A DNA stretch of 42,406 nucleotides, taken from Pseudomonadota bacterium (GTDB taxonomy: Bacteria > Desulfobacterota > Desulfobulbia > Desulfobulbales > Desulfocapsaceae). Location: positions 1 through 42,406 of the forward strand of contig JAHJKP010000009.1 of the NCBI GenBank assembly GCA_018821985.1, read 5' to 3'. This document shows positions 1 to 36,542 of the stretch, piece by piece. Under the pieces are notes generated by a model. That model saw nothing but the letters and a program-made list of their open reading frames with translations. It ran no database searches and was not told the origin of the DNA. Numbering within the stretch: position 1 is the stretch's first letter; each line of letters starts with the position of its first letter. The position numbers and the translations under genes are program-made.

Positions 1-1077
1 CCCTGAAGATATTGTCTTCGCAAGCATTTTTGCCGATAATGTTTTGGCTATTCCCGGAACTCCTTCTAGAAGAATATGTCCGTTGGTTAATAGTCCTATT
101 ATCATAAAATCTATCATATCATCCTGACCAATAATAACTTTATTAAGTTCTGTTCTAATTCTTTCCGAGAAATTATAAATCTTGAGAATTTCAACTTTCC
201 TTGGCAAAAATTCTTTTTTATTTGGGTCAAGCTCTGTTGTAATAACGATATCAGCATGAACGCTTCGAGTACCATGTAGATCGTTTGGATTTATAGCTTC
301 ATTCAACTCGAATTTTATTCGTTTGTTGATCCTTCCAGGAACAATTCCCGCCCAAGACCGAGTGCTGCTATCTTTGTCACTTGCCCATATTTCAATCTCG
401 GTGTTCAGTAAAACTTCAGTGTCCTGTGTCTTTTCTGGTGGCTCGTATTTAGAAGGGGCCTCTTTAGCAAAAGCAGGTGTTATTGTTAGATCTTTCAGCT
501 GATTATCATTAAATTCTATTGCCGCACCTTCTTCCAATTGAGCCGGAGAAATGACTGCAATAGCCTCTTGGCTCAGTTTCTTTTTATCCTTTGTTTTATT
601 CAATATATCTGTGATTGCTTTTTCAGAGATGTTCATTTCACCTCCTGTTTGGACAATTGCACCACTGTATGCAACTATACTGGTTGATGGTGTGGTGACA
701 CCCTGATTGATCAAAGCGTTTCTCACCCCAAAGCCAATAAATGCCGCAACACCAATAACTACAGCTCCAGTCAGTACAGGGTTTGATTCAAACATTTTAC
801 CGGCGACCTCAATAGCTTGATCGTAGTTTGCTTTATCTTTAAAGACTATTCTAATTAAGAAATCTTCAAGAAGGCTTCCTGCTTCAACCTTGCAAACTAG
901 AACTTCAATATCGACAACTGTAGCGCCCTTGCAAGCTTCTTCAATAAAAGGGCTAACTCTTTTTAACAGTTTTTCATAAGCCAGTAAAGACTCTACAAGT
1001 TGGCCAATGGGGATAGCTCCCTTATTAGTATATTTTACTTTGTAAGGAACTTCAATGACATTTAGATCTGTCTTCAT
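1..1077 (-). CDS. Phage-type N-terminal domain fused in frame to start of MoxR AAA+ ATPase (partial)
   Basis: The frame is open from an ATG at 1077 (AAAGGA Shine-Dalgarno about 7 nt upstream) to the window edge, 359 codons with no stop. Residues 1 to about 300 start MKTDLNVIEVPYKVKY and include a hydrophobic glycine/valine-rich stretch near 115-135. I associate this type with uncharacterised proteins next to phage repressors; that is memory, not a search. From about residue 305 the sequence becomes a typical MoxR N-terminus: NKVIIGQDD, then NGHILLEGVPGIAKTLS, whose GVPGIAKT is the Walker A loop. MoxR ATPases are AAA+ chaperones that usually work with von Willebrand factor A partners. The gene lies 31 bp downstream of the repressor on the same strand, so the two may be co-transcribed. 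Both halves are equally AT-rich, unlike the phage body and the right-hand host flank. It is either a real two-domain cargo protein or a read-through across the prophage left end into an interrupted host moxR. Confidence 0.7.
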   Translation of the reverse strand, partial: MKTDLNVIEVPYKVKYTNKGAIPIGQLVESLLAYEKLLKRVSPFIEEACKGATVVDIEVLVCKVEAGSLLEDFLIRIVFKDKANYDQAIEVAGKMFESNPVLTGAVVIGVAAFIGFGVRNALINQGVTTPSTSIVAYSGAIVQTGGEMNISEKAITDILNKTKDKKKLSQEAIAVISPAQLEEGAAIEFNDNQLKDLTITPAFAKEAPSKYEPPEKTQDTEVLLNTEIEIWASDKDSSTRSWAGIVPGRINKRIKFELNEAINPNDLHGTRSVHADIVITTELDPNKKEFLPRKVEILKIYNFSERIRTELNKVIIGQDDMIDFMIIGLLTNGHILLEGVPGIAKTLSAKMLAKTISSG

Positions 1078-2080: not shown

Positions 2081-2275
2081 ATGACACCACGACAAATCAG
2101 AGGACTGCTGGTTACCGAGGGAATAACCCTCGTCTCAATTGCCAAAGATCTTCATGTTTCGGCTGCGGCGATATCACAGGCCATAAGTCATAAAACCGTG
2201 TCTAAAAGGATACGGGAAGAGATAGCCAGGCGACTGAACAAGAAGGCCTCTGATCTATGGAAGAAAGCCGCATAA
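2081..2275 (+). CDS. ner: Ner/Nlp-like DNA-binding regulator
   Basis: 64 aa, the size of the Mu Ner/Nlp family. Almost the whole protein is one helix-turn-helix (ITLVSIAKDLHVSAAAISQA), ending with a basic tail LNKKASDLWKK. In Mu, Ner is the first early gene and acts like Cro: it lowers transcription from the early and repressor promoters. First gene rightward from the control region and divergent from the S24 repressor, exactly the Ner position. RBS AAAGAGG lies upstream of the ATG. Name by family and position. Confidence 0.85.
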   Translation: MTPRQIRGLLVTEGITLVSIAKDLHVSAAAISQAISHKTVSKRIREEIARRLNKKASDLWKKAA

Positions 2276-3216: not shown

Positions 3217-3866
3217 CGGAACCGGGAAAAGGTGAACTGGTAGAGGCGATGTTGATGCCTGATGTGTTTTCGGCGAATCAAGTCCAACGGTTAAAGGAAC
3301 TTGAAACCGTTATAAGAAGCGATTTACAGGCCTTTCTCAGGGTCGGGGCCGCACTGGCCGAAATCAGGAATAACGGGCTTTATATGGTGAATAGCCATGT
3401 ATCTTTTGAGCGATATCTCCGGGATAAATGGGGAATGGGACAATCACAAGGGTATCGATTAATTGACGCCCATACGGTTGTGCAAAGTTTGAAAAGTTCC
3501 CCAATTGGGGAACTTTTGCCCGATAACGAGTCCCAGATCAGGCCATTGACTAAATACAAGGATAAGCCGGAGATGCTGGCCAATGTGTGGCAGATGGCTG
3601 TTAATGCTGCCCATAACGGCAAGATCACGGCTAAATTAGTGAAGAATGCCCTGACCTACGTCACCGGGGAAGAAGTGGACCGCAAGATCCGCAAGGCGTC
3701 TGCGGTAGCCGAAAAAGCCCCTCATGGTATTTCGGAGTTTACCACTACCTATCAACTGCTTTTGGATGCGATCAGTCGGGAGGTGGCGTCAGGATTTGCC
3801 ACCACTGACAAGGAGACTATCCTTATGTGTCTGGAGGCGGCCCTGGGGGTCGTTGACGAGATATGA
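3213..3866 (+). CDS. Putative early DNA-binding protein
   Basis: 217 aa. The N-terminal half has a helical region followed by SFERYLRDKWGMGQSQGYRL, a pattern seen in plasmid/phage proteins carried next to ParB-like or methylase genes (resembling DUF3102-like DNA-binding proteins). Residues ~100-150 (NESQIRPLTKYKDKPEML, GKITAKLVKNAL) are also typical of that group. The function is probably DNA binding during replication or regulation; the family assignment is from memory and tentative. It overlaps its neighbours by 4 bp on both sides (ATGA at 3213 and 3863), so it belongs to one early operon leading into the transposase. Confidence 0.75.
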   Translation: MTEPGKGELVEAMLMPDVFSANQVQRLKELETVIRSDLQAFLRVGAALAEIRNNGLYMVNSHVSFERYLRDKWGMGQSQGYRLIDAHTVVQSLKSSPIGELLPDNESQIRPLTKYKDKPEMLANVWQMAVNAAHNGKITAKLVKNALTYVTGEEVDRKIRKASAVAEKAPHGISEFTTTYQLLLDAISREVASGFATTDKETILMCLEAALGVVDEI

Positions 3867-6124
3867 AAAGGCCGGGAAAGGCCGTCAAGACCAATTACAG
3901 CGCTGAGGAATTGGCTGAGATGGCTATTCCCGGATTACCTGCGACAAAGAGCGGAATATTGAGGATGGCCAAAAACAAAAAATGGACCGCCATCACCATG
4001 CCCAGTCGCGGAGGGTCTGTAAAAAAATATCTAACCCTGCTCCTGCCCGAGGCCGTGCGCATAGGGATTGCGGCCAAGGTGACGGCGGCAAGTATTGGCA
4101 ACCACTCCAGCGCCGGGGCGCAGGCAGGGGCTAATCTGGCGCAAAGGCTGCTGGCCCGTGATTCCCGCGAGGATACGCAGGAGGCCATCGCCAAAGAGCG
4201 CGGACTGGCTGCCTATAACATCCTGGCCGCCGATAAAAAGGCGATCGCCGATGCCCGGCGCGAGATCCTGTGCGCCCGTAACGCCTTTATCAGGTCGGCT
4301 GGAGTTACGGTCAAGGCCGGGACGCAGGCTTTCTGCGATCATTACCTGACCGGGGCGATACAGCTGCCTGAGAGTGTTGTCGACATCATCGGAAAGACGC
4401 TGTCCTGGTCGACGCTGAACCGTTGGCAGAAGGCCTATGATACCCTCGGCATGATCGGGCTGGCCCCCGGTTATCATAATCCGAAGAAGGGCAGCACTAC
4501 CGTGCCGGAGCCGATGCGCGATCTGATTATCGGGCTGGTGGTGGCCTATCCGCATATTGAAATGACGAGGGTTATGGACGCACTGGCTGCCCGGTTTCAT
4601 GATCAGGATCTGCCATCCGAGTCCGTGGCCCGGAGATATACCAACCAGTACAAAGCAAATAACGCCGGGCTGCTGCTGGCCATTAAAAACCCGGACAAGT
4701 GGCGGAGCTACCGGCAACTGGCCTTCGGGTCGGTGTCGGAGAATGTCGAGCGCCTCAACCAGATGTGGGAATACGATTCCACCATCGGCGATGTCATGCT
4801 CAAAGAGGGCAGGCACTGCGTGATCGGAGTGATCGACCTCTTTACCCGGCGGCTCAAGCTGCTGGTGTCGAAGACATCGCGGTCCACGGCGGTGGCGGCG
4901 ATCACCAGGGCGGCGGTGCTCGACTGGGGCGTGCCGGAGTGTATCCGCACAGACAACGGCGCGGATTATACCAGCGCCCATATGGTGCGGGTAATCGAAG
5001 GGCTGGGCGTGGGCTGGGACCTGTGTACCCCTTTCCAGCCGCAACAGAAACCGCATATAGAGCGGGCCTTTCAGACCTTTACCGGCGGCCTGTTCGAGCT
5101 GCTGCCCGGTTATGTCGGCCATTCGGTTGCCGATCGTAAGGATATCGAGGCACGTCGCAGTTTTTCCCAACGGTTGATGGGCAAGGGCGGACAGGTGGAT
5201 ATCGATCTCACCGCCGCCGAGTTTCAGGCCCTGTGCGACGACTGGCTGAATGCCATCTATCATCAGGATAAACATGCCGGGCTGGGCGACAAGAGCCCGG
5301 CTGAGGTGGCCAGGAGCTGGCGGAAGCCGGTGCGGATGATCAGCGACGAGCGGGCGCTGGACTGTCTGCTGGCCGAGGCCCCAGGAGGAGGCGGGCTGCG
5401 GACGGTGACCAAGAAGGGCATCCACATCGACAACATCACCTATCAGGCCCCGGAGTTCGGCGCGATTATCGATAAGGCCCGCCAGGTGCGGGTGCTGATC
5501 GACGCCGCCGATCTGGGCCAGGTACATTGTTACGATCCGGAGTCAGGAGTGTTTCTGTGCGTGGCGGTTGACCCGATGCGCAAAGGGATCGACCGGGCGG
5601 AGATGGCGGGCAAGTCCCATGCCATCCAGAAGCAGGTCATGGCAGACGGCATCAAGAAATTGAAGAAGATCGCCCGCGATACGGCAGCCGATGGGATTCA
5701 CCAGGAGATCCTGGCCCACCGCAAGGGGCTGATCGCCAATACGGTGGAGCTGCCGAGGTTGACCATGGAGTACACCACTCCGGCCCTGGAAGAGGCGGGG
5801 CTGGCGGCTGTGGCGTTGGCTGGGAAGAGGCGCGAGCCGCTGGAGATGAGTGTGGCAGAGATCGCCCAGAGCGAAGCGATACTGGCGGAGCTGGAGCGGA
5901 AGAGCGGGATCAGGATGGCGATGCCGGCCACTGAGACCGAGGCCTATGATATGCTGCTGGATGAGCGGGACAGCCAGGGTTTGGAGCTGTCGGATCGCGA
6001 GGAGCGCTGGGTTTTGGAGTATGAAATTTATCTGGAGACCGGCAGGAGGAAGGGGTTGATGGCCGAGGGATGGCAGCCGTATGCGGAGCGGGCGCGGATC
6101 GCGCGGGAAGCGACGGGGAAATAA
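3863..6124 (+). CDS. MuA-type DDE transposase
   Basis: 753 aa, slightly longer than Mu transposase (663 aa). Residues 1-75 form a Mu-type DNA-binding domain (GLPATKSGILRMAKNKKW). The RNase H-like catalytic core follows, with acidic residues in MWEYDST (Asp305), RTDNGADY (Asp364) and PHIERAFQTF (Glu400). Asp364 and Glu400 are 35 residues apart. The C-terminal part corresponds to the Mu transposase beta-barrel and MuB-interaction region, ending in a charged helix. It inserts phage DNA into the host and replicates it by transposition, with the MuB-like ATPase as partner. It overlaps the upstream gene by 4 bp. No tyrosine or serine integrase is visible, so this is the sole integration enzyme. Confidence 0.95.
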   Translation: MKRPGKAVKTNYSAEELAEMAIPGLPATKSGILRMAKNKKWTAITMPSRGGSVKKYLTLLLPEAVRIGIAAKVTAASIGNHSSAGAQAGANLAQRLLARDSREDTQEAIAKERGLAAYNILAADKKAIADARREILCARNAFIRSAGVTVKAGTQAFCDHYLTGAIQLPESVVDIIGKTLSWSTLNRWQKAYDTLGMIGLAPGYHNPKKGSTTVPEPMRDLIIGLVVAYPHIEMTRVMDALAARFHDQDLPSESVARRYTNQYKANNAGLLLAIKNPDKWRSYRQLAFGSVSENVERLNQMWEYDSTIGDVMLKEGRHCVIGVIDLFTRRLKLLVSKTSRSTAVAAITRAAVLDWGVPECIRTDNGADYTSAHMVRVIEGLGVGWDLCTPFQPQQKPHIERAFQTFTGGLFELLPGYVGHSVADRKDIEARRSFSQRLMGKGGQVDIDLTAAEFQALCDDWLNAIYHQDKHAGLGDKSPAEVARSWRKPVRMISDERALDCLLAEAPGGGGLRTVTKKGIHIDNITYQAPEFGAIIDKARQVRVLIDAADLGQVHCYDPESGVFLCVAVDPMRKGIDRAEMAGKSHAIQKQVMADGIKKLKKIARDTAADGIHQEILAHRKGLIANTVELPRLTMEYTTPALEEAGLAAVALAGKRREPLEMSVAEIAQSEAILAELERKSGIRMAMPATETEAYDMLLDERDSQGLELSDREERWVLEYEIYLETGRRKGLMAEGWQPYAERARIAREATGK

Positions 6125-6591: not shown

Positions 6592-7323
6592 TTGAAACAT
6601 GAGATGGCAATGACAAAAAACGTGCGGCGCTTTGTGGGAGCGGTGCGTGAGCTGTCCCAGCGCGGGCCGGGGCTGGAGGGTATGGGTCTGCTCGGCGGTG
6701 AGCCGGGCGAGGGCAAGACGACCACCCTGGCCTATGTCAGCAACCTGGTCAACGGGGTCTATGTGCGGGCCAACGCCTGCTGGACCGTCACCGCGATGCT
6801 GGCCGAGATCAGCCATGAGCTGGGTCTTCCCCGCCAGCGCTTCAAGCACCCGATGATAAACGGCATCATCGGCGCCATGCTGATGGATCCCCGGCCGATC
6901 TTTGTTGATGAGGCAGATTATCTGCTGCGCTCCACCGATATGCTGGACACCTTGCGCGATATCTATGACATGGTGCCGGGTGCCTGCGTCATCCTGGTGG
7001 GCATGGAGGAGCTGGCCGCCAAGGTGCGGGCCAATGGCCGATTCGCCCGGCGCGTTACCCAGTGGGTAGAGTTTTCCGGGCTTGATGTGGCCGATGCGGT
7101 AACGCTGGCCTCAACCGTCTGCGAGATCCCGGTGGGACGCGACCTGGTCGAGCACCTGCACAAGGAGACGCGGGGCAATGTGGGGCGCATGGTGGTAGGC
7201 CTGACCCGCATAGAGTCCCTGGGACGCTCCCAGGGACTGGAGGCCGTGGATCTGGCCGCCTGGGGAGACCGGCAGCTCTTTTTCGATCAGCAAGCCGGAA
7301 GGAGGAAGAACGGTGGCCGGTAA
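6592..7323 (+). CDS. MuB-type AAA+ target-selection ATPase
   Basis: 243 aa from a TTG start, chosen because GGAGG lies 7 nt upstream. Walker A is GGEPGEGKTTT (Lys42) and Walker B is PIFVDEADY (103-110). A sensor/arginine-rich region follows (NGRFARRVTQWVEF). MuB binds target DNA as an ATP-dependent filament, delivers targets to the transposase and gives target immunity. Shorter than Mu MuB (312 aa), mainly at the N-terminus. It overlaps the next gene by 11 bp. Confidence 0.92.
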   Translation: MKHEMAMTKNVRRFVGAVRELSQRGPGLEGMGLLGGEPGEGKTTTLAYVSNLVNGVYVRANACWTVTAMLAEISHELGLPRQRFKHPMINGIIGAMLMDPRPIFVDEADYLLRSTDMLDTLRDIYDMVPGACVILVGMEELAAKVRANGRFARRVTQWVEFSGLDVADAVTLASTVCEIPVGRDLVEHLHKETRGNVGRMVVGLTRIESLGRSQGLEAVDLAAWGDRQLFFDQQAGRRKNGGR

Positions 7324-35060: not shown

Positions 35061-35267
35061 CGCAAGGTTTGGAACCTCTGAAAAAGCTATTAATTAGCTA
35101 TTAACGAGGGTTCAAACCTTGCAACATTTGGTTCCAAACCTTGCGCCGCTTTACACCTCGCGCAAACTGGTTTCAAGGCACGCGCAAGACTACAGACAGA
35201 CGGGGGACAAAACACTGCAAACGAAAAAAGGCTTTACAACGAAAACGCTGCAAAGCCTTGCAATTAG
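35061..35267 (+). other. Probable prophage right end with transposase-binding-type repeats
   Basis: 207 bp without a gene. GGTTCCAAACCTTGCG occurs on the minus strand at 35061-35076 and on the plus strand at 35130-35145, a perfect 16-bp inverted pair. Related copies are GGTTCAAACCTTGCAACA (35109-35126), GGTTTCAAGGCACGCGCAAG (35169-35188) and GCAAAGCCTTGCA (35250-35262). Such site clusters are expected at the ends of Mu-type phages, where the transposase binds. The exact end, probably a CA dinucleotide such as 35261-35262, cannot be fixed, because the matching left end was not found. Confidence 0.6.
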
Positions 35268-35343
<76 letters not shown>

Positions 35344-35583: not shown

Positions 35584-36411
35584 CTAATCTAAAGAGAGTG
35601 AAAGATCGGCAAGATCGTCGGATCCTTTCTTCTCCGATGTATCGTGCCCTTCACCCACATCTCCCAGATCAAGGTCGAAGTTCAGGTCATCATCGGCAGG
35701 AAGAGAAGACGATTGCGGAGGAGGAGGGGGGGCTTGCAGGGCACCAGAAAGATCCAGGTCATCAAGAGACAGAGTGGCCAGATCGCCCTCATCAGCTGAG
35801 GAATCTACGTCACTGCCTTTCTCTCCACCAAAGGACAGATCCAGATCATCGAGATCAAAGTCAGTATCAAGATCATTTTTCACCGCCGCTCCAGAAGCCG
35901 GACGCGCAAGATCGGAAATATCGGCCAACCCTTCCGGGATTTCAAACGGTGCAGGTCCTGTAGTTTGTGCTGCTTGCACCGCCTGAACATTAATCGGCAC
36001 ATCTTCAAAACGGCTGGTATCTAAAAACAAGTCTTCTTCATCAAAAGACAGATCGTGATCTTTATTGTCAGGACTAAATTCAATCTCAAAGTCATCATCA
36101 GAAGAGATATCACTGGTGCCAGATGACTGCATATCGTCCTTCATCACGATTTCCTGACTATCAACCTCGCTGTCCTCAAATTCGATCACATCCTCATTCT
36201 CGACAGCAAGCAGATCCAGATCGGGATCAAGAACATCAACCAAATCTTCTTCATGCTCACTGACATCCATTTCAGAAGAAAACTGCAGAAAGAGAGGAAC
36301 GACAACGTCATATGTTGTTCCCTTTAAGTCACCACCAGCCATTGGCTTATGACATTTTCGACAACTCTCCTGATGATCAAACGAGATATATCCACATTTA
36401 GAACAACGCAT
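35584..36411 (-). CDS. Zinc-ribbon protein with long acidic tail
   Basis: 275 aa from the ATG at 36411 (AGAAAGGA upstream; a GTG at 36417 is possible). N-terminal zinc ribbon: MRCSKCGYISFDHQESCRKC. The rest is disordered and highly acidic, with repeats such as DLDLGDVGEG, DFDLDDLDLSFGG and LDDLDLSG. No membrane segment. The family seems common in delta-type genomes; function unknown, perhaps a scaffold or nucleic-acid mimic. Host gene, first on the right of the prophage after tRNA-Phe. Confidence 0.78.
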   Translation of the reverse strand: MRCSKCGYISFDHQESCRKCHKPMAGGDLKGTTYDVVVPLFLQFSSEMDVSEHEEDLVDVLDPDLDLLAVENEDVIEFEDSEVDSQEIVMKDDMQSSGTSDISSDDDFEIEFSPDNKDHDLSFDEEDLFLDTSRFEDVPINVQAVQAAQTTGPAPFEIPEGLADISDLARPASGAAVKNDLDTDFDLDDLDLSFGGEKGSDVDSSADEGDLATLSLDDLDLSGALQAPPPPPQSSSLPADDDLNFDLDLGDVGEGHDTSEKKGSDDLADLSLSLD

Positions 36412-36542
36412 AATCACTTTTCCTTTCTAAAAAGAACCCTGCTCTTCACAATTCCCTTTAACTATTCAGACCATACAAACTTAAGCCTTCAACTAGTTCC
36501 ATTCAGTATTGCACATTCACCCCTCGAGAATCAAGAAATAAT

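What the first reader, a model, noticed from the sequence alone, without database searches (positions are those of the whole stretch)
1..1077. In-frame joining of a repressor-linked phage protein to a MoxR AAA+ ATPase
One open frame links a ~300-residue phage-type protein to the MoxR start (NKVIIGQDD, then the GVPGIAKT Walker A loop). Either this is an undescribed two-domain cargo/defence protein beside the repressor (both halves are equally AT-rich), or it marks the prophage left end having landed just inside a host moxR, creating a read-through hybrid. The first case could belong to MoxR-VWA type conflict systems.
Basis: partly seen in the sequence, partly recalled or inferred. Interest (0 to 1): 0.62.

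Follow-up and report, generated by a model that had tools for sequence, protein, structure and literature searches.

The report
Prophage cargo protein fused to MoxR
At the left side of a Mu-like virus sleeping in a bacterial genome, a gene of the kind such viruses often carry next to their repressor runs without a break into the start of a MoxR-type ATP-powered protein; it looks like accessory cargo of the virus rather than a damaged host gene, but the assembly stops before the gene ends.

Summary
One minus-strand frame (1077..1, 359 codons, open at the contig edge) joins a complete phrog_4506 protein (residues 7-300) in frame to the first 58 residues of a MoxR AAA+ ATPase, Walker A included. 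The window is the whole contig C1, so the rest of MoxR and any partner cannot be read; model searches did not find it elsewhere in the genome.

"Prophage landed in a host moxR" is not supported. In 7 of 7 relatives read, the stretch beside tRNA-Phe holds no moxR. The MoxR piece is AT-rich (34% GC; host moxR 56%) and 55% identical to the host's. A Mu-like left end of this phage type lies at the end of contig C38, upstream of fusA, so MoxR probably sits inside the prophage, between left end and repressor; no matching target duplication was found. In one related prophage with both ends defined, this slot holds the defence gene PD-Lambda-1/SNIPE.

All ten phrog_4506 relatives read are unfused; the window is the only fusion seen. 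Best reading: a repressor-linked accessory protein with a fused MoxR motor, probably for exclusion or defence. Membership in MoxR-vWA conflict systems is unproven. A recombinational pseudo-fusion or contig-end chimera remains possible.

The parts
175..1077 (-). N-terminal part (residues 1-301): phrog_4506 protein, with one hydrophobic segment about residues 100-123 and a beta-rich C-terminal region, residues 217-301
1..174 (-). C-terminal part (residues 302-359): start of a MoxR-type AAA+ ATPase with Walker A GVPGIAKT, cut by the contig edge
1109..1768 (-). S24-type phage repressor (HTH plus Peptidase_S24), same strand, ends 31 bp before the cargo ATG
2081..2275 (+). small protein divergent from the repressor with weak HTH matches below cut-off (Ner-like by position; inference)
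3863..6124 (+). Mu-type DDE transposase (rve plus Mu-transpos_C)
6592..7323 (+). AAA ATPase in MuB position
35061..35194 (+). right end of the prophage: inverted and direct copies of GCAAGGTTTGGAACC-like sites and terminus ...GACTACA at 35194
35268..35343 (-). host tRNA-Phe, its 3' end 73 bp from the prophage right end
35584..36417 (-). host gene (zinc-ribbon-like by eye) used to find the site in relatives

Best explanation
The window holds a Mu-like prophage inserted beside tRNA-Phe. Between its repressor gene and its left end it carries an accessory gene, transcribed with the repressor in the lysogen (inferred from strand, 31-bp spacing and the Fc02 precedent). In this phage the accessory protein is a membrane-anchored phrog_4506 protein whose C-terminus continues, with no intervening common start codon, into a MoxR AAA+ ATPase domain. 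Most likely the phrog_4506 part sits at the inner membrane as sensor or effector and the MoxR part supplies ATP-driven remodelling of it or of a partner (perhaps a VWA protein in the assembly gap), giving exclusion of other phages or another benefit to the lysogen. Shown: the open fused frame, domain boundaries, repressor linkage, absence of moxR at the site in the relatives read, and a left end of this phage type on another contig. Inferred: that the two contigs belong together, that the fusion is made as one protein, its membrane placement, its expression and its function.
For: In-frame joint at both domain boundaries: the relatives' aligned ends fall just past residue 301 and the MoxR profile starts at residue 307 at its position 6. 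9 of 9 intact relatives match phrog_4506 over nearly the whole profile. The gene follows the repressor in 6 of ten relatives: directly in L048, L067, L068, L008 and L076, after one more gene in L049. Host site: 7 of 7 loci read have tRNA-Phe and no tblastn match to the MoxR piece, while the positive control L001 is hit. The genome holds exactly 3 matches to the terminus pattern (reversed-pattern control 0): the window right end, a mini-element on C9, and C38:199-234, which lies at a contig end upstream of fusA; fusA is the gene next to tRNA-Phe in G002 and G008. MoxR piece 34% GC against 56% for the host moxR. Slot precedent: G430, with both ends and a 5-bp duplication AAGAA, carries PD-Lambda-1 in the same slot (E 1.5e-165). 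RNA-Seq of the B3-like (Mu-like) phage Fc02 shows an accessory gene downstream of the repressor transcribed in the lysogen (PMC9936078, passages).
Against: Only one fused example was found; all ten relatives read are unfused. The MoxR part is 174 bp at a contig edge and the rest was not found in the assembly. No tblastn match to the MoxR piece lies near any of the ten phrog_4506 relatives, two of which (L008, L076) stop at the gene end. In 4 of ten relatives (L069, L070, L073, L077) no repressor was seen directly before the gene. The left end on C38 and the right end do not share a 5-bp duplication, and the link of C38 to this site rests on the gene order of G002 and G008; in G003 five ORFs lie between fusA and tRNA-Phe, and four of the seven relatives have other genes there. 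phrog_4506 has no known function, and PADLOC gave no match below E 0.004 for the seven family members scanned. The structure model is poor (mean pLDDT 48.7).
Confidence: 0.55

Rival explanations
1. Pseudo-fusion: the phrog_4506 gene and a separate downstream moxR-like cargo gene were joined by a deletion or recombination in this prophage or strain; the hybrid frame exists but has no selected function.
For: All ten relatives read are unfused, the nine intact ones with 299-332 residues; the MoxR genes looked at start 20 or more residues before the shared helix, and the hybrid lacks that stretch (by eye); the left end on C38 shows, by eye, a 10-bp tandem duplication and has no matching target duplication, as an ageing prophage might.
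Against: The joint is in frame and respects both domain boundaries; no MoxR match is seen near any of the eight relatives whose 3' flank can be read.
Confidence: 0.27
2. Assembly chimera: the last 174 bp of the contig belong to another molecule in the sample.
For: The joint is close to a contig edge; the rest of MoxR was not found in the genome; the two contigs of related phages in G427 stop within, or about 100 bp past, the repressor-like ORF, so this spot may be hard to assemble.
Against: A random joint would rarely be on the same strand, in frame and at both domain boundaries; both halves are AT-rich.
Confidence: 0.13
3. The prophage left end landed in a host moxR and the frame reads out of the phage.
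For: The frame does pass from a phage-type protein into a MoxR; MoxR-like genes are common in the order (183 of 257 genomes).
Against: No moxR at the site in 7 of 7 relatives read; no terminus-like pattern at or near the joint; a left end of this phage type is on C38; composition unlike host moxR.
Confidence: 0.05

Closest known systems
PHROG family phrog_4506 (unknown function), found behind the repressor in 6 of ten relatives read, in lambda-like and Mu-like phages
   Same: Full-length profile match (6-298 of 300), place beside the repressor, a hydrophobic segment near residue 100
   Different: The nine intact members read here end at 299-332 aa; this one runs on into MoxR
MoxR-type AAA+ ATPases (Pfam AAA_3 / bpMoxR)
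   Same: N-terminal helix, VIIGQ motif and canonical Walker A GVPGIAKT; the best 20 matches in the order are 54-63% identical over about 50-55 residues
   Different: No MoxR N-terminus of its own; fused behind a phage protein; AT-rich; catalytic remainder unseen
MoxR-vWA ternary conflict systems (Kaur et al. 2020, PMC7159879; passages and section 22 read)
   Same: A MoxR ATPase coupled to a membrane-associated protein in a mobile, possibly defensive setting (likeness by inference)
   Different: No vWA or third component seen; P-loop is not the GXXXTAKS form said to be frequent in the FtsH and beta-propeller systems; fusion on one chain
Repressor-linked accessory genes of Mu-like phages (Fc02 e4, PMC9936078, passages read) and PD-Lambda-1/SNIPE (PMC13190303, passages read), the latter found here in the same slot of a relative (G430)
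   Same: Same slot between repressor and left end (G430), same strand; SNIPE is membrane-anchored, as is proposed here
   Different: Unrelated protein families; no nuclease domain recognised here; e4 has no assigned function

Membership tests
phrog_4506 | profile match over the whole family length | tested here: met
   positions 6-298 of 300, E 6.1e-65
phrog_4506 | stand-alone protein of about 300 residues (seen in all ten relatives read) | tested here: not met
   frame open to residue 359 and the contig edge; nine intact relatives 299-332 aa, the tenth 5'-truncated and unfused
MoxR AAA+ ATPase | N-terminal MoxR helix, VIxGQ motif and Walker A (motif names recalled) | tested here: met
MoxR AAA+ ATPase | Walker B, sensor motifs, arginine finger and C-terminal lid | not testable with these tools
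   beyond the contig edge; remainder not found elsewhere in the genome
MoxR-vWA ternary conflict system | adjacent vWA partner | not testable with these tools
   sequence left of the window is not in the assembly
MoxR-vWA ternary conflict system | third component (VMAP, iSTAND, FtsH or beta-propeller protein) | not testable with these tools
   same gap
MoxR-vWA beta-propeller/FtsH type | P-loop of form GXXXTAKS (often present, PMC7159879 section 22) | tested here: not met
   window has GVPGIAKT; the bpMoxR model also rings in 12 of 14 control genomes, so that name is not specific
Mu-like transposable prophage | DDE transposase with Mu C-terminal domain and a MuB-position AAA ATPase | tested here: met
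Mu-like transposable prophage | paired termini with transposase-site-like repeats | tested here: met
   right end 35061-35194; left end C38:1-234, joined to this prophage by inference
Mu-like transposable prophage | 5-bp target duplication at this copy | tested here: not met
   GACAG right, TGTAA left; the pattern GACAGTGTAGNC has 31 one-mismatch matches and no exact one in the genome (control 52); relative G430 has AAGAA on both sides

The most novel reading that the evidence does not exclude
A phage-borne exclusion or defence protein in which a membrane-anchored phrog_4506 sensor/effector and its MoxR chaperone ATPase are one polypeptide, carried in a repressor-linked defence slot of Mu-like prophages: a single-chain form of MoxR-dependent immunity not seen in the paper searches made here.
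Probability: 0.22. Interest if true: 0.65.

Novelty: new variant of a known kind. Interest (0 to 1): 0.38.

Why it matters
If the fusion is real, it ties an uncharacterised phage family, often repressor-linked (its E. coli member is in 148 of 5426 genomes), to a MoxR ATPase and so suggests that phrog_4506 proteins act with an ATP-driven remodelling step. It also points to the stretch between repressor and left end of this Mu-like family as a place where accessory defence genes are kept (PD-Lambda-1/SNIPE in G430; two further cases by gene order only).

Tried and rejected
Host moxR hypothesis: rejected from the site in relatives, composition and the left end on C38. Searching the genome for the rest of MoxR with the AAA_3 and bpMoxR models: matches on C1 itself, the complete moxR on C7 and other AAA-type frames of 466-817 aa. 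Searching for a second fusion: 20 phage records and 94 plasmid records matched; in the rows shown (20 of 20 and 40 of 94) no match covers most of both parts; some MoxR rows reach 10-35 residues left of the joint (for example H17 from 285, H26 from 268), and of these I looked at H17 only, without deciding. A target duplication with GACAG was not found. Structure: the model is poor; its better part (residues 217-301) has OB-fold-like PDB hits (IF-1, SSB) with best E 0.018 and none at 0.001; the viral library gave 4 hits at E <= 0.001, all with TM-score 0.34 or less; I rely on neither. Solved-structure sequence search: nothing below E 0.47. PADLOC: a weak IetA match to the MoxR part (E 0.0077) and a weak ApeA match to L067 (E 0.0046), not relied on. 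Left termini of G020 and G470 were not found, so their slot assignment rests on gene order only. A possible alignment of the L008 tail with the MoxR start in another frame was dropped as likely chance in AT-rich sequence.

Full report
What is there. The window is the whole contig C1 of its genome (42,406 bases). On the minus strand one frame runs from an ATG at 1077 to the contig edge at base 1 without a stop. Residues 7-300 match the phage family phrog_4506 from profile position 6 to 298 of 300 (E 6.1e-65); residues 307-357 match the start of a MoxR ATPase (bpMoxR E 5.1e-6, slightly under its cut-off and over it in the six-frame search; AAA_3 E 0.0017, under its cut-off). The MoxR part is 174 bases long and then the assembly ends. 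The frame is coding: against the 84%-identical relative L008 third positions change most (32/19/65). No ATG, GTG or TTG occurs in frame between residues 291 and 321. The gene lies 31 bp behind an S24-type repressor on the same strand and AAAGGA stands shortly before its ATG.

What surrounds it. The element is a Mu-like prophage: DDE transposase with Mu C-terminal domain at 3863-6124 and an AAA ATPase in the MuB position. Its right end, with repeated GCAAGGTTTGGAACC-like sites, finishes with ...GACTACA at 35194, 73 bp from the 3' end of tRNA-Phe. In the related prophage of G430 the ends are TGTAGGG... and ...GGCTACA, flanked on both sides by AAGAA, which fixes the form of the termini and the 5-bp duplication for this kind of phage.

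Is MoxR host DNA? I took the host gene right of the prophage (35584-36417) and found it in 29 of 38 genomes searched, own genome included; I fetched the neighbouring stretch (6.9-14.5 kb) in 7 of the others. All 7 have tRNA-Phe there; none has a match to the MoxR piece by tblastn (L001, the host's own moxR, was the positive control). The gene next to tRNA-Phe is fusA in G002 and G008; in G003 fusA lies further left with five ORFs between; the other four relatives have other genes, so the site is variable. In this genome the fusA block lies at the start of contig C38, 92% identical to G002, and the first 234 bases of that contig, read outwards from fusA, begin TGTAGCCTCGTG... and hold three GGAACC sites; the G430 left end shows GAACC sites at two like positions in the script and, by eye, a third. 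A terminus pattern has exactly three matches in the 3.3-Mb genome (control, reversed pattern: none): the window's right end, a mini-element on C9, and this place on C38. So the prophage most likely runs from C38 across an assembly gap into C1, and MoxR lies inside it, between left end and repressor. Against this stands one result: the 5 bp before the C38 end (TGTAA) and after the right end (GACAG) differ, and no exact GACAG-flanked left end was found (31 one-mismatch matches against 52 in the control). By eye the C38 end carries a 10-bp tandem duplication, so it may have decayed. Composition agrees with cargo: MoxR part 33.9% GC, phrog part 38.8%, repressor 50.5%, phage body 57.2%, host stretch 51.4%, host moxR open frame 56.1%. 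The host's own moxR on C7 is complete and 55% identical.

What the N-terminal protein is. Ten relatives were read. Nine have an intact start and end: L008 305, L076 308, L073 299, L048 299, L067 306, L068 306, L049 304, L069 305, L070 332 residues; L077, which reads as the same gene as that of G088 and is counted once with it, lacks its start and ends likewise unfused. All nine intact ones match phrog_4506 nearly end to end. In L048, L067, L068, L008 and L076 the gene follows the repressor directly, in L049 after one more gene (the L008 repressor is judged by eye); in the other four (L069, L070, L073, L077) no repressor was seen directly before it. Nine of the ten proteins in the hydropathy run (window and nine relatives) have their most hydrophobic segment starting at residue 100-119; L069 has it at 61. 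A DNA search with the E. coli member found it in 148 of 5426 E. coli genomes; of the 15 rows shown all are named hypothetical protein, one with an IS1 element in it. PADLOC gave no match below E 0.004 for the seven family members scanned, and a paper search for phrog_4506 gave none.

What sits in the same slot elsewhere. In the family, 93 genomes were searched with the transposase; five near-complete matches lie in four other genomes. In G430, with both ends defined, the gene between repressor-like ORF and left end is PD-Lambda-1 (E 1.5e-165; DUF4041 plus T5orf172 domains), now called SNIPE, a membrane-bound nuclease (PMC13190303, passages read). In G470 genes there match SoFic (E 3.3e-46), RmrA (E 1.4e-18) and, weakly, PDC-S70 (E 1e-4); in G020 a STAND-like ATPase (PDC-S01, E 2.2e-4) and an IS transposase; their left termini were not found, so these two rest on gene order. 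The two G427 contigs stop within, or about 100 bp past, the repressor-like ORF. In the B3-like phage Fc02 the accessory gene behind the repressor is transcribed in the lysogen; it has no assigned function (PMC9936078, passages read).

How it probably works. [quoted passage not shown] the beta-rich end of the phrog part passes into a MoxR ring-forming ATPase that remodels it or a partner. MoxR proteins often act with a VWA protein (PMC7159879, passages); none can be seen because of the gap. Exclusion or defence is suggested by place and by the neighbours in the slot of relatives, not shown.

Known systems. The MoxR-vWA conflict systems (PMC7159879, passages and section 22 read) have a vWA partner and a third component, which cannot be tested here; the P-loop form GXXXTAKS reported as frequent in two of them is not present (GVPGIAKT). 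The Pfam name bpMoxR is no evidence for them, since that model also rings in 12 of 14 control genomes. I therefore do not file it there. Searches for MoxR with conflict, prophage, anti-phage or vWA terms (listings only, apart from PMC7159879) showed no title or abstract start describing such a fusion; the bodies of the other papers were not read.

Verdict. Real observation; most likely phage cargo and not a landing in host moxR; a single example at a contig edge, so the fusion as a working protein is likely but unproven.

Noticed in passing
window 35169-35194 and 35268-35343; L116 9235/9346; L109 (reverse) 15426/15796; L114 8378: Right ends of these Mu-like prophages lie near the 3' end of a tRNA gene, right end facing it, in 3 of 4 cases read: 73 bp (tRNA-Phe), 110 bp (tRNA-Arg) and 369 bp (tRNA-Phe); the fourth (G470) has no tRNA in the 12 kb fetched. 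This suggests non-random, perhaps Tn7-like targeting. Two paper searches listed no title on it; passages of PMC11656645 tell of Tn7-like homing beside tRNA genes, and passages of PMC5977238 of hotspots near BIME repeats for two Pseudomonas transposable phages.
   Followed up: partly
L036 about 1502-1566 (G000:C9:22088 on): A mini-element of about 65 bp with both termini of this phage type (TGTAGCC... and ...GCTACA), 80 bp behind tRNA-Arg; a related one in L037 about 1476-1540 beside a tRNA-like fragment and an integrase-like gene (both judged by eye; ARAGORN reports no tRNA in L037).
   Followed up: partly
L115 10739-12244: PD-Lambda-1/SNIPE gene in the repressor-to-left-end slot of a related Mu-like prophage with a clear 5-bp duplication.
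   Followed up: partly
L066 (G000:C38) about 790-860, reverse strand: Sequence that by eye resembles a decayed tRNA-Phe between fusA and the prophage left end, suggesting earlier insertions at this site; ARAGORN does not call it.
   Followed up: no
L073 2511-8234: In an Alkalimonas MAG the phrog_4506 gene stands before an ORF with a DNA-methylase-like NPPY motif and a 920-aa ORF, a possible defence neighbourhood with no repressor directly before it (motif recalled, no family search).
   Followed up: no
L008 6890-6918: Shortly before the stop of the L008 relative stands a run of seven A; in another frame the tail gives KKLN, like the MoxR start of the window. Probably chance.
   Followed up: no
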